A stretch of 64,000 nt of DNA from Pedococcus aerophilus (lineage in GTDB: Bacteria; Actinomycetota; Actinomycetes; Actinomycetales; Dermatophilaceae), in NCBI RefSeq assembly GCF_039532215.1, contig NZ_BAAARN010000003.1, positions 1-64,000 on the forward strand. The letters run 5' to 3'. Position 1 is the first letter of the stretch, and each line of letters begins with the position of its first letter. Shown piece by piece: positions 54,117-63,610 of the stretch. Position numbers and translations under genes: made by a program. The notes under the pieces are model-generated. The model made no database searches. It saw nothing but the letters and a program-made list of their open reading frames with translations, and had not been told where the DNA came from.

Positions 54117-54190
54117 CCCTTCGGCAGCAACCTCTGCTAGCAGATGTTGCTGCCGAAGGGCCAGGTTGCTGCCTACGGGCCGGGCAGCAA
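54117..54190. repeat. GGTTGCT-core hairpin cluster, left of the DUF559-like gene
   Basis: CCCTTCGGCAGCAACCTCTG and its near-mirror around CTAGCAG form a 44-base hairpin (54117-54160). A second inverted pair, TTGCTGCC/GGGCAGCAA, follows (to about 54190). The matching structure on the other side of the gene is at 55259-55355. Confidence 0.8.
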
Positions 54191-54259
54191 GGTGTGCTGG
54201 GTCAGCGGTTGTCCACAGGCCTTCCGCGGCGGACGTGGCGGGTGCGGCAGGCTGCGCCG

Positions 54260-55252
54260 ATGGAACTCCACGAGCTGGCGCGTGACAGCGTCGTCTCCGC
54301 CGCAGAGGCCGCGCAGCTCGGCCTCGGCCCCTCCGACCTTCGGCGGATGAGGCGACTCGGGTCAGTCCGGCGCCTCATCCGCGGTTGGTATGCCGTGTGC
54401 CCGCCAGGCGCACCCACCCCACCCTGGGAGGGTGCGGACCACTTCGACACGGCGCGCCGTCAGCACCGCCTGCTCACGGTCGCGCTGATCCGGTCGTTCG
54501 AGGGAAGGGCCGTTGCCAGCCACCAGTCCGCGTTGGTCCTGCACGACATACCGCTCTGGAAGTCGGACCTCGCCACGGCACACCTGTGCCGCCGCCGGGA
54601 CGACCATTCCCGGCACCGGCCGGCGGCCACGTTGCACCCTGCGTGCCAGGCCGAGCCCGTGCTGTCACCGCCCGGCTATCTGACGGTGCCTGTCCCCCAG
54701 GCGGTCGTGCAGGTTGGCCTCCATCCTGTCGGGCCCGGACGCGGAACCTTCCCCTTCGAGAGCCTGGTCGCTGCGGACGCGGCACTGCACCATGGACTGA
54801 CCACGCTGGATGAGATCCAGCAGGTCGTCCACGCCCACGCCGGACATCCCGGCATCGCCGGGGTGCGACGGTTGCTCGAGCGCGCAGATGGTCGCCACGA
54901 GTCCGTGGGCGAGACCCGGCTCGCCCACACCCTCCGGCTCCTGGGGTACCGATTCACCCCGCAGGTGTGGGTGACAGCCGAGGGACGGCGGTGGCGCGCC
55001 GACTTCGAGCTGGACGACGAGCCGGTGATCGTCGAGTTCGACGGCCTCGCCAAGTACACCGGTGGGCTGCCGAACCCGACCCCGGAGCAGAGCCGCCAGG
55101 CTCTCGCCACCGAGAAGTGGCGTGAGGACCGGCTGCGCGACACCGGGCGCGAGGTGACACGGTTCGTGTGGGCCGAGGTGGACGACCTCCCCCTGGTCCG
55201 ATCCCGGGTGGACGCGGCCATCGTGCGGTCGCGGCGTCGTCTCCGCATCTGA
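54260..55252 (+). CDS. DUF559-like endonuclease-fold protein with AbiEi-like N-terminus
   Basis: 330 residues. The N-terminal 50 residues look like a winged helix as in AbiEi-type antitoxins (L-G-P-S-D-L-R-R-M-R-R-L-G, then R-R-L-I-R-G-W-Y). The C-terminal 110 residues carry the Vsr/DUF559 PD-(D/E)XK core: Glu218 in V-G-E-T-R, Asp248 in R-A-D-F-E-L and Glu259/Asp261 in V-I-V-E-F-D-G, then R-E-D-R-L-R-D and V-T-R-F. So an active nuclease is possible. Function unknown. Palindromes flank it on both sides (54117, 55259). Confidence 0.8.
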   Translation: MELHELARDSVVSAAEAAQLGLGPSDLRRMRRLGSVRRLIRGWYAVCPPGAPTPPWEGADHFDTARRQHRLLTVALIRSFEGRAVASHQSALVLHDIPLWKSDLATAHLCRRRDDHSRHRPAATLHPACQAEPVLSPPGYLTVPVPQAVVQVGLHPVGPGRGTFPFESLVAADAALHHGLTTLDEIQQVVHAHAGHPGIAGVRRLLERADGRHESVGETRLAHTLRLLGYRFTPQVWVTAEGRRWRADFELDDEPVIVEFDGLAKYTGGLPNPTPEQSRQALATEKWREDRLRDTGREVTRFVWAEVDDLPLVRSRVDAAIVRSRRRLRI

Positions 55253-55258
55253 AGTCAC

Positions 55259-55355
55259 CTGGGGCGGCACTGAGCGCAAGTTGCTGCCCCAGGGTCAGGT
55301 TGCACCCTGCCCCTCGAGCAGCAACTTCTGCTAGCAGAGGTTGCTGCTCGAGGGG
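55259..55355. repeat. GGTTGCT-core hairpin cluster, right of the DUF559-like gene
   Basis: CTGGGGCGGCA pairs with TGCTGCCCCAG (55259-55292, one mismatch). The 46-base hairpin at 55310-55355 has arms CCCCTCGAGCAGCAAC and GTTGCTGCTCGAGGGG around TTCTGCTAGCAGAG. Compared with the left copy the outer stem changed from CCTTCG/CGAAGG to CCTCGA/TCGAGG, i.e. both strands changed together, so base pairing is conserved. Confidence 0.8.
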
Positions 55356-55430
55356 CGGCTGAGCCGCCGCTTGGGTCCGGGTGGTGGACCTGACGTCCCA
55401 CGCCTCGGGACGTGGTGCGACACTGATGGC

Positions 55431-56552
55431 GTGACTGACAACGCCGCCCAGACGATCCCCGCCGACTTGCTCCCCAAGGACGGGCGGTTCGGCTCCGGTC
55501 CTTCGAAGGTGCGCCCCGAGCAGGTCGAGTACCTCGCGAGCCTCGGGACCACCGTGCTCGGCACCTCGCACCGCCAGGCCCCGGTGAAGAACCTCGTCGG
55601 CGCCGTCCGCGAGGGCCTGTCCCAGCTGTTCAGCCTGCCCGAGGGCTACGAGATCATCCTCGGCAACGGCGGCTCCACCGCGTTCTGGGACATCGCCGCC
55701 TTCGGACTGGTGCGCGAGCGCGCCCAGCACCTGGCGTTCGGTGAGTTCTCCTCCAAATTCGCGAGCGTCACGAACAACGCCCCGTTCCTGGGCCACTCGA
55801 CCATCATCAAGGCCGACCCGGGCACGCTGGCGAGCGCGCGGGCCGAGGCCGGCGTCGACGTCTACGCCTGGCCGCACAACGAGACCTCCACCGGCGTCAT
55901 GGCCCCGATCATGCGCGTCGAGGGTGCCGACGACGACGCCCTCGTCCTCATCGACGCGACGAGCGGCGCCGGCGGCCTGCCGGTCGACATCAGCGAGACC
56001 GACGTCTACTACTTCGGCCCCCAGAAGTGCTTCGCCGCCGACGGTGGCCTGTGGCTCGCGGCGTTCTCCCCCGCCGCCCTGGCCCGGGTCGACGAGATCG
56101 CTGCGACGGGCCGCTGGGTCCCCGACTTCTTCAGCCTGCCGACCGCGATCGACAACTCGCGCAAGAACCAGACCTACAACACCCCCGCCGTGTCCACGCT
56201 GGCGCTGCTGCGTTCGCAGATCGACTGGATCAACGGCAACGGTGGCCTCGACTGGGCCGTCACCCGCACCGCCGACTCCAGCGGCCGCCTCTACGACTGG
56301 GCCGAGCGCACCAGCTACACTACGCCGTACGTCGCCGACCCCGCCGCCCGCTCGCAGGTCGTGTCCACCATCGACTTCGACGACGCCGTCGACGCCTCGG
56401 CCATCGCCAAGACCCTGCGCGCGCACGGTGTCGTCGACGTCGAGCCCTACCGCAAGCTCGGCCGCAACCAGCTCCGCGTGGCGACCTTCCCGGCCACCGA
56501 GCCCGAGGACGTCTCTGCCCTGATTGCGTGCATTGAGCACGTTGTGGGCTGA
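55431..56552 (+). CDS. serC: Phosphoserine aminotransferase (mycobacterial type)
   Basis: 373 residues from a GTG. PLP Lys199 in [15 protein letters not shown] near 20-26 is the family start. It transfers the amino group from glutamate to phosphohydroxypyruvate in serine synthesis. The mycobacterial-type sequence is one reason to assign the window to actinobacteria. Confidence 0.95.
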
Positions 56553-62300: not shown

Positions 62301-62352
62301 CCACCACCCCGCGCGCCCCGCGCCATACCCCCTCGCCTGCGCTGCTCTCCGC

Positions 62353-62420
62353 GCAAAACGGTGGTTGCTCGACGAAACGGCGGACATGGGGCCCGTTTCG
62401 TCGAGCAACCACCGTTTCGC
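62353..62420. repeat. 68-bp palindromic element, copy 2
   Basis: Same outer arms as copies at 26576 and 63543; centre reads GGACATGGGG. Lies between DUF2530 and the 3' end of the second DUF559-like gene (convergent). Confidence 0.92.
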
Positions 62421-62460
62421 TGAGGTCAGATCGCCGAGACGTATGCCGCGAGCGGGCTGC

Positions 62461-63381
62461 TCACGCGGCTCGACGCAGCAGCACGGCCCGGACTCGGGCC
62501 AGGACGCGCTCCGGGTGGCTCAGGTCGTCCCAGGTGAGGCGAACCACCTCGTAGCCCAGCTCGCGGAGCCGGTCCTCACGCCGCTTCTCTGCCACGACGA
62601 CCTCGGCACCATCAGCGCCCTTGTACTTCACCGCTCCGTCGAACTCGATGACGACGCGACCCGCGACCAGGAAGTCCACGCGTGCGACGAAGCTGCCCCT
62701 CTGGTCGCACACGACCACCTGGGATGCGACCGGCAGCCCCAGGGCCGTGAGAACGAGTCGGGTCCTGCTCTCCCCCGGCGACTCCGACGCCCCGTCGATG
62801 TGGGCCAGGGCGGCCCTCAGCCGCGCCTTCCCGCGCAGACCACGACGCAGACGAGAGGCGGCCTCCGCGAGATCTGCTTCGGTGCACCGCCCATCGTGGA
62901 CCGCCGCATCCCCGGCCACGACTCCAGCTTCGACGCTCACCGATGCCACGGCGACGACCGCATCCGCGACGGCCATCACGGCCAGACCCTCCACCTCGAC
63001 GCGGTCGACGAGGGCACGCAGCGGCATCACCCTGACGCCCCCTCCGGTGGTGGTCTCCTGCACGTCCGCCGCCAGGACGACGAGGTCCCGATCCACGTGC
63101 CACAGCGGAAGTCGGTGAAGCGCCAGGGCGGAGTGGTGGCTGGCCATCTCGTCGACGCCGCGAGAGCGCATGGCCGCGGCCACCGTCAGTCGATAGCGCT
63201 CGTCCCGGTCGGCGGCACTCCACGCAGCCGCTCCGATGAAGGCTCCACGACGAACCCTGACCAGGTCTCCGCCGACGACCCAGCGGCTCACCTCGTCGGG
63301 CGGGATCCCCAAGCGGGTCAGCTGGCGAGAGCCCAGCACACCGCCCTGCGCAGTCATCAGGGCACTGGCTCGCGAGTCCAT
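62461..63381 (-). CDS. DUF559-like endonuclease-fold protein, second paralogue
   Basis: 306 residues from the ATG at 63381; no good ribosome site is visible. N-terminal winged-helix-like part (L-G-I-P-P-D-E-V-S-R-W-V, R-V-R-R-G-A-F). C-terminal Vsr/DUF559 core: Glu204 in P-G-E-S-R, Asp236 in R-V-D-F-L, Glu246/Asp248 in V-I-E-F-D-G, then R-E-D-R-L-R-E and V-V-R-L-T-W. The layout matches the gene at 54260 though the sequences differ widely. It lies between 68-bp palindromes at 62353 and 63543. Confidence 0.8.
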   Translation of the reverse strand: MDSRASALMTAQGGVLGSRQLTRLGIPPDEVSRWVVGGDLVRVRRGAFIGAAAWSAADRDERYRLTVAAAMRSRGVDEMASHHSALALHRLPLWHVDRDLVVLAADVQETTTGGGVRVMPLRALVDRVEVEGLAVMAVADAVVAVASVSVEAGVVAGDAAVHDGRCTEADLAEAASRLRRGLRGKARLRAALAHIDGASESPGESRTRLVLTALGLPVASQVVVCDQRGSFVARVDFLVAGRVVIEFDGAVKYKGADGAEVVVAEKRREDRLRELGYEVVRLTWDDLSHPERVLARVRAVLLRRAA

Positions 63382-63542
63382 GACGGCGAGAGTGGTCAGG
63401 TCGTCACTGCCCAGCCAGCCTGCGACGCCAGACCTGTGGATCGTCGACGTCGCCGAGCCGGGTTGTGGACAGGCCGTCAGGCCCGGGCCCTCGGCCGCCG
63501 GGGCCGACGCGCCATACCGAGGTCCGCAAGACCCATGCCCCA

Positions 63543-63610
63543 GCAAAACGGTGGTTGCTCGACGAAACGGGCTCCATGTGCGCCGTCTTGTCGAGCAACC
63601 ACCGTTTTGC
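63543..63610. repeat. 68-bp palindromic element, copy 3
   Basis: Outer arms as before; centre reads GGGCTCCATGTGCGCC. The A-tract and T-tract at both ends (GCAAAACGG, CCGTTTTGC) are complete. Lies upstream of the DUF559-like gene and 35 bases beyond the DUF3027 stop, so it also fits as a terminator for that gene. Confidence 0.92.

What the first reader, a model, noticed from the sequence alone, without database searches (positions are those of the whole stretch)
54117..63610. Two DUF559-like nuclease genes, each framed by palindromes that share a GGTTGCT core
Both genes (54260-55252 and 62461-63381) encode an AbiEi-like winged-helix start plus a Vsr/DUF559 PD-(D/E)XK core with intact acidic residues. 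One is flanked by hairpins built from RGTTGCTGC, the other by 68-bp palindromes with arms GGTGGTTGCTCGAC. Both element types contain GGTTGCT, and one right-hand hairpin reads GGTTGCTGCTCGA, close to GGTTGCTCGA. A nuclease-fold gene between its own palindromes recalls REP elements with RAYT proteins: the protein may recognise, move or protect these elements, or a host defence system may use them. A simpler reading is that the palindromes are only terminators.
Basis: partly seen in the sequence, partly recalled or inferred. Interest (0 to 1): 0.75.

Follow-up and report, generated by a model that had tools for sequence, protein, structure and literature searches.

The report
Nuclease genes with their own palindromes
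In a family of soil actinobacteria, a DNA-cutting-type protein gene often sits between two copies of a long palindrome that also occurs elsewhere in the same genome, and in the relatives compared the palindrome's sequence changes along with the gene, which suggests an undescribed gene-and-palindrome partnership resembling the REP/RAYT elements of other bacteria but built on an unrelated enzyme.

Summary
The genes at 54260-55252 (+) and 62461-63381 (-) each lie between long palindromes, and 5 of the 6 DUF559-type genes found in this genome do, each with a different palindrome. In 77 homologous loci the left and right flanks match each other in 51, against 3 of 364 neighbouring control genes. 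Lone copies of the palindromes are dispersed, 29 of 33 classifiable ones between convergent genes. The type tracks the gene. The 54260-gene palindrome occurs in exactly the 4 of 11 genomes of the genus with that gene at its site. The 62461-gene palindrome occurs at 9 sites here and in none of 10 relatives, bar two single-arm hits; two relatives whose orthologue has a different palindrome have that one dispersed. The predicted structure joins a whole AbiEi-type DNA-binding protein to a Vsr/I-Bth0305I-type nuclease. Best reading: the protein recognises its palindromes, and nuclease-triggered copying spreads or homogenises them. Recognition is well supported but indirect; copying is inference. 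The shared GGTTGCT core is not essential.

The parts
54117..54160 (.). left palindrome of the first gene (core GCAGCAACCTCTGC TA GCAGATGTTGCTGC with outer arms CCCTTCG/CGAAGGG)
   Evidence: core found at 7 sites in this genome
54161..54198 (.). accessory inverted copies of the GGTTGCTGC/GCAGCAAGG motif next to the left palindrome
   Evidence: sequence; similar arrangement at many other copies
54260..55252 (+). gene 1 (P1): AbiEi-type winged helix plus Vsr/DUF559-type nuclease, 330 aa
   Evidence: syntenic orthologues in 3 of 10 other genomes of the genus; dN/dS 0.16-0.24,
55273..55308 (.). accessory GTTGCTGC/GGTTGC motifs before the right palindrome
   Evidence: family D10, pair I13
55309..55356 (.). 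right palindrome of gene 1
62353..62420 (.). 68-bp palindrome downstream of gene 2
62464..62787 (-). nuclease domain of gene 2 (residues 199-306), closest folds I-Bth0305I, NGO0050, Vsr
   Evidence: invariant E204 D236 E246 D248
62461..63381 (-). gene 2 (P2): 306-aa AbiEi-nuclease fusion
62794..63381 (-). AbiEi-like DNA-binding and C-terminal regions of gene 2 (residues 1-196)
63543..63610 (.). 68-bp palindrome upstream of gene 2, inverted partner of 62353-62420
26576..26643 (.). lone copy of the gene-2 palindrome between convergent genes

Best explanation
Each gene encodes a single-chain protein made of an AbiEi-type winged-helix DNA binder and a Vsr/EDxHD-type nuclease. It recognises, probably as a dimer, its own long palindrome. 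Two copies frame the gene; the upstream one probably also lets the protein control its own expression. Further copies are dispersed, mainly between convergent genes. The protein keeps that palindrome family present and alike: it cuts or nicks DNA at or near palindromes and repair copies the palindrome from another site, a homing-like or gene-conversion process. The gene stays as one copy and is inherited vertically while the palindromes multiply, are lost and change type. It therefore works like RAYT with REP elements but with an unrelated enzyme. Shown by computation: paired palindromes, dispersal, tracking of type with the gene, purifying selection, predicted fold. Inferred: binding, cutting, copying.
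For: Left/right flanks match in 51 of 77 loci vs 3 of 364 controls. Gene-1 palindrome in exactly the 4 of 11 genomes (this one included) with the gene at that site, 7/8/3/14 sites, 0 in the other 7. Gene-2 palindrome at 9 sites here, no hairpin in 10 relatives; the G142/G143 version at 9 and 6 sites in those two and none here. At one syntenic site the orthologue carries four palindrome versions in five genomes, left and right copies alike within each genome. Copies within this genome are 88.5% identical on average; at three shared gaps the partner in the relative is 57.5-66.7% identical although flanking genes are about 82-92% identical. Lone copies are gained or lost: of 14 gaps with a lone gene-2-type copy in three genomes, 8 have a clear copy in one genome only. 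Second genus of 16 genomes: a third type is dispersed in G056 and G065 and sits at the gene in G057; 12 genomes have none. Fold: AbiEi plus I-Bth0305I/Vsr nuclease, pLDDT 95.6. Published: AbiEi binds pairs of 23-bp inverted repeats in its own promoter (PMC7319586, passages); I-Bth0305I dimerises on a target of nearly 60 bp (PMC3943268, passages).
Against: No binding, cutting or movement has been seen. Across 77 loci the correlation of protein distance with flank similarity (rho 0.225) is hardly above that of control windows (0.194); only pairs with at least 50% protein identity show enrichment. 26 of 77 homologues and 1 of 6 genes here lack a clear pair. Copy numbers are low (3-14 sites per genome for gene-1 and gene-2 types). 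Insertion ends could not be fixed to the base because intergenic DNA is too diverged, and no target duplication was seen. At shared gaps, independent insertion into hot spots cannot be told from conversion in place. Absence of gene 1 from the seven genomes was shown at the syntenic site only. One more framed gene of this genome (L011) changes frame in the middle and looks broken. A RAYT search of the genome was not made.
Confidence: 0.55

Rival explanations
1. Regulator reading: the AbiEi-like part binds the palindromes as operators, autoregulating its gene and marking a small set of gene ends; palindrome and protein co-evolve as a transcription factor and its sites do, and the nuclease part has another task or is silent.
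For: AbiEi proteins bind inverted repeats in their own promoters; where an upstream hairpin was found (33 of 77 loci) it ends a median 94 bp before the start codon; some palindromes sit at the same gap in related species.
Against: Lone copies lie between convergent genes (29 of 33 classifiable), not at promoters; a matching copy often lies behind the gene too; lone copies come and go between close species; catalytic-type residues are invariant in a 49-sequence alignment.
Confidence: 0.2
2. Defence or repair reading: a Vsr/AbiEi-related nuclease attacks foreign or mismatched DNA and the palindromes mark self, guard against it or control its expression.
For: PADLOC AbiEi models match the N-terminal part; a Caulobacter DUF559 protein, VsrA, is needed for a DNA damage response in cells lacking a cytosine methyltransferase (PMC12907096, passages).
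Against: The genes next to gene 1 and gene 2 are citrate synthase, a class-V aminotransferase, DUF2530 and DUF3027, no toxin or methyltransferase; dispersed, lineage-specific palindromes are not expected for mismatch repair; no relative confirmed in viral contigs.
Confidence: 0.1
3. An unrelated transposase (RAYT, IS or MITE type) elsewhere in the genome moves the palindromes and the DUF559 gene is a passenger.
For: REP elements are moved by separate transposases; a whole-genome search for a RAYT was not made.
Against: The palindrome type tracks the DUF559 gene in 11 genomes; 51 of 77 homologues from several genera are framed by matching copies.
Confidence: 0.08
4. The palindromes are ordinary bidirectional terminators.
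For: Convergent-gene location (29 of 33 vs 11 of 58 background gaps); outer stems of the gene-1 type covary (57 cells changed on both sides vs 29.6 in shuffles, 0 of 500; but the number of pairs changed on both sides, 10 vs 8.4, is not unusual, 59 of 500).
Against: Terminators need no gene-specific sequence; cognate type tracking, matching pairs around one gene family and genome-wide sameness are unexplained. Termination may be a secondary role.
Confidence: 0.07

Closest known systems
REP/REPIN elements with RAYT transposases (REPtrons)
   Same: A single-copy, vertically inherited gene between inverted palindromes; dispersed intergenic copies of the same palindrome; palindrome type tied to the gene; copies mostly at gene 3' ends.
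   Different: Protein is an AbiEi-Vsr/EDxHD nuclease fusion, not a HUH tyrosine transposase; no GTAG foot; longer units (46-70 bp); 3-14 sites per genome for the types counted, rather than the usual >100 (PMC2817692, abstract start in the listing).
AbiEi type IV antitoxins
   Different: Fused to a nuclease, no toxin gene next door, palindromes also downstream and dispersed.
EDxHD homing endonucleases (I-Bth0305I) and Vsr
   Different: Free-standing between ordinary chromosomal genes, none confirmed in viral contigs; AbiEi DNA-binding part; framed by repeated palindromes; no methyltransferase gene adjacent.
CGTC-type REPs (PMC3733652)
   Same: Dispersed palindromes for which no RAYT-type transposase is known.
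   Different: Different sequences and hosts; whether a DUF559 protein accompanies them was not tested.

Membership tests
REP/RAYT (REPtron) | gene encodes a HUH/Y1 tyrosine transposase | tested here: not met
   Pfam finds AbiEi_4 and DUF559/MTES_1575, no Y1 transposase; model matches AbiEi plus I-Bth0305I/Vsr
REP/RAYT (REPtron) | gene framed by inverted palindromes | tested here: met
   51 of 77 homologues with matching flanks
REP/RAYT (REPtron) | palindromes dispersed in intergenic DNA, type tied to the gene | tested here: met
   copy number low
REP/RAYT (REPtron) | GTAG (or CGTC) unpaired foot | tested here: not met
   none at the feet in alignments A3 and A5, by inspection
REP/RAYT (REPtron) | single-copy gene, vertical inheritance | tested here: met
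   one copy of each type here; syntenic in relatives
AbiEi antitoxin | AbiEi two-domain fold | tested here: met
AbiEi antitoxin | AbiEii nucleotidyltransferase toxin in the same operon | tested here: not met
   adjacent genes are citrate synthase, class-V aminotransferase, DUF2530, DUF3027 (Pfam)
EDxHD homing endonuclease | EDxHD/Vsr-type catalytic domain | tested here: met
EDxHD homing endonuclease | cuts an unoccupied target and copies its own gene into it | not testable with these tools
   no experiment; the gene itself is not seen to spread, only palindromes
Vsr repair endonuclease | linked to a cytosine methyltransferase | tested here: inconclusive
   none adjacent; genome not searched
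insertion sequence / MITE | target-site duplication | tested here: inconclusive
   gaps too diverged to place the ends

The most novel reading that the evidence does not exclude
A new class of genome-resident element: free-standing AbiEi-nuclease fusions act as homing endonucleases for palindromes. They cut at or near divergent or missing palindromes, and repair from other copies spreads and homogenises a palindrome family that changes with the protein's DNA specificity. Several such pairs, each with its own palindrome, coexist in a genome and recur across this actinobacterial family.
Probability: 0.4. Interest if true: 0.9.

Novelty: categorically new. Interest (0 to 1): 0.8.

Why it matters
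REP-like palindromes are widespread, yet a dedicated protein is known mainly for the RAYT class; PMC3733652 says that CGTC REPs apparently lack one (abstract and passages seen). Here an unrelated nuclease family, with members in 166 of 186 genomes of one bacterial family, has gene-specific palindromes at many of its members. If right, it shows a second, independent way for bacteria to keep families of palindromes, gives a context to AbiEi-DUF559 fusions, and offers many natural protein/DNA-site pairs for specificity tests.

Tried and rejected
Shared GGTTGCT core as the link between the two elements: rejected, because orthologues of gene 2 at the same site use palindromes without it. A simple terminator reading: kept only as a side role. 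A phage-borne element: no relative confirmed in viral contigs (20 pattern matches, 0 confirmed). Correlation of protein distance with palindrome similarity over 77 loci: significant by permutation (0 of 999) but hardly above a control with windows 1.5 kb away (rho 0.225 vs 0.194), so I do not lean on it (266 of 2926 pairs dropped as syntenic or related). Covariation in the gene-2 palindrome: none beyond shuffles, in either orientation handling; the gene-1 type does covary on most measures. Base-exact empty sites: not obtained. NCBIfam gave no family for genes 1 and 2. The profile search of solved structures gave only two abortive-infection proteins of AbiEi/AbiGI type at E 0.21.

Rows dropped, chosen or faulty: 3 of 80 loci (L089, L137, L161) had a flank under 200 bp and were left out; matches that start inside the protein there may misplace the left flank. 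The ten gaps were those not already found shared; the four shared gaps were not searched in the third genome. In one search one G143 element (C6:152402) was cut out wrongly (the locus has an N), so the G143 means there are too low. In one search some marker proteins were translated in a wrong frame and served only as position marks; serC and the gene behind P2 were redone. In one search, 7 of 40 lone-copy sites were not classified (5 at a locus edge, 2 inside a called ORF); gene calls there used a lower score limit than the background, and some gaps are shared between species, so the p-value is nominal. In the second genus, flanks were fetched for 16 genes of 10 of the 16 genomes, taken from the capped list, so other genes there may carry the type unseen.

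Papers: PMC3733652, PMC8049555, PMC7319586, PMC3943268, PMC12306157 and PMC12907096 were seen as search listing, abstract start and passages only; other titles as search listing only. No link of DUF559 or AbiEi-nuclease fusions to palindromes was found in the searches; this library lacks most subscription papers.
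Full report
WHAT IS THERE. The window belongs to a 4.02-Mb actinobacterial genome in 10 contigs. Gene 1 (P1, 54260-55252, +) lies between genes for a citrate synthase and a class-V aminotransferase (taken as serC); gene 2 (P2, 62461-63381, -) lies between a DUF2530 and a DUF3027 gene. The two proteins are about 33% identical. Gene 1 is framed by hairpins at 54117-54160 and 55309-55356, gene 2 by 68-bp palindromes at 62353-62420 and 63543-63610. 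A lone copy of the gene-2 palindrome is at 26576-26643.

NOT JUST THESE TWO. Three searches of the genome found six genes of this kind. Five of the six are framed by palindromes, each gene by a different one; the gene at C1:1921498 (L010) is not, at the threshold used. One of the five (L011) has its winged-helix half and its nuclease half in different frames and looks broken. In the bacterial family, 166 of 186 genomes (this one included) hold homologues at E <= 1e-15, often several. In 80 named loci, 77 had both flanks. There the left 300 bp match the right 300 bp (score >= 20, either orientation) in 51 of 77, against 3 of 364 neighbouring genes in the same loci; at score >= 28, 42 of 77 against 1 of 364. 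Hairpins of score >= 13 on both sides occur in 15 of 77 against 1 of 364, and on at least one side in 42 of 77 against 49 of 364. Where an upstream hairpin of that strength was found (33 of 77), it ends a median 94 bp before the start codon.

DISPERSED COPIES TRACK THE GENE. The gene-2 palindrome occurs as nine hairpins in this genome, seven of them away from the gene (plus one weak single arm); ten other genomes of the genus have none, apart from one single-arm match each in G142 and G147. In G142 and G143 the orthologue at the same chromosomal place carries another palindrome, and that one is dispersed there (9 and 6 sites including the pairs at the gene). It is absent here; single matches in G138 and G144 lie inside long ORFs. 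The gene-1 palindrome occurs at 7, 8, 3 and 14 sites in this genome, G142, G143 and G145, the four genomes with gene 1 at its site, and at none in the seven without. The chance of such a match of four among eleven is 1 in 330 by simple counting, relatedness aside. Absence of gene 1 elsewhere in those seven genomes was not tested. In a second genus of 16 genomes, a third type was found dispersed in G056 and G065 and only at the gene in G057, the genomes from whose genes the motif was taken. It was found as two weak single arms in G052 and in none of the other 12; so the informative part is the absence elsewhere.

EVOLUTION. At the gene-2 site, five genomes carry four palindrome versions: this genome, G142/G143, G147 and G141. 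In each, left and right copies resemble each other. Copies in this genome are on average 88.5% identical. At three gaps a lone copy here faces a lone copy of the other type in G142 or G143; the pairs are only 57.5-66.7% identical although the neighbouring genes are about 82-92% identical. A fourth such gap came up, so 4 of 7 lone copies here share their gap with a palindrome of another version. The other three have no gene-2-type copy in either relative. Seen over three genomes, lone gene-2-type copies occupy 14 gaps. Four were shared (three as above, one between G142 and G143). Of the remaining ten, examined, eight have a clear copy in one genome only; one has a copy of its own version in each of two genomes; one has a clear copy in G142 and a decayed one here. 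So copies are gained, lost and rewritten. Whether rewriting is conversion in place or fresh insertion into favoured gaps is open: one gap holds a third palindrome type in G140 and none in G139.

WHERE THE LONE COPIES LIE. Of 40 lone-copy sites, 33 could be classified: 29 lie between convergent genes and 4 between tandem ones, against 11 convergent of 58 background gaps of 60-400 bp (Fisher p about 9e-11, nominal). This is also a usual place of REPs (PMC3733652, abstract and passages), and it fits a side role in termination or simply a harmless landing place. In the gene-1 type the outer stem varies but tends to stay paired (57 cells changed on both sides, 29.6 in shuffles, 0 of 500; the number of pairs with such changes, 10 vs 8.4, is not unusual). 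In the gene-2 type sequence is fixed in both arms without covariation beyond shuffles, as expected for a DNA-binding site.

MECHANISM. I hold it likely (about 0.85, my judgement) that the protein recognises its cognate palindrome. I hold it about as likely as not that its nuclease activity drives the copying and homogenising of palindromes by break and repair. The rivals (regulon, defence, foreign transposase, terminator) each fail on at least one of three facts: the pair around the gene, the dispersal between convergent genes, and the tracking of type.

COMPARISON. It works like REP/RAYT: RAYTs are single-copy, vertically inherited genes that duplicate REPINs (PMC8049555, passages). It is not a member: the enzyme is not a HUH transposase and the GTAG foot is missing. 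I rate it categorically new because no tested defining molecular feature of the enzyme is shared; a reader who defines the kind by its organisation alone would call it a new variant of the REP kind. The literature searches made showed no earlier report.

Noticed in passing
window, 18 places, e.g. 54050-54079, 60346-60384, 62441-62450: The decamer GTATGSCGCG occurs 18 times in the window against 0.28 expected. It also forms a hairpin (GGTATGCCGCG...CGCGGCATACC) behind citrate synthase in several genomes of the genus that lack gene 1 there: another dispersed motif without a known partner.
   Followed up: partly
L013 2110-2155 and 3343-3388; L012 2295-2338 and 3337-3378; L011 2165-2227 and 3024-3064: Three more DUF559-type genes of the same genome, each between its own palindromes of different sequence, one pair 100% complementary over 46 nt. 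The L011 gene has its two halves in different frames.
   Followed up: partly
L010 1821-2771: A DUF559-type gene of the same genome without palindromes at the threshold used: a counter-example.
   Followed up: partly
L210 1290-1455 and L070 5479-5528 (G140): A further palindrome family (CGGCGCTAACTCGCC...) sits, four times in a row, in the gap where this genome has its lone copy at 26576; its partner gene was not looked for.
   Followed up: no
L296 and L306: Decayed palindromes built on CGCTGGTTGCGCGG occur in gaps of this genome and of G142, perhaps relics of an older palindrome family.
   Followed up: no
L288 and L302: A palindrome version intermediate between the types of this genome and of G142/G143 (GGGGGTTGCTCGGCAACACGG in G142, decayed in this genome), perhaps the ancestral form.
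   Followed up: no
L135: The flanks of this MAG locus share a very long direct match (score 143.5), far beyond the palindromes elsewhere; not examined.
   Followed up: no
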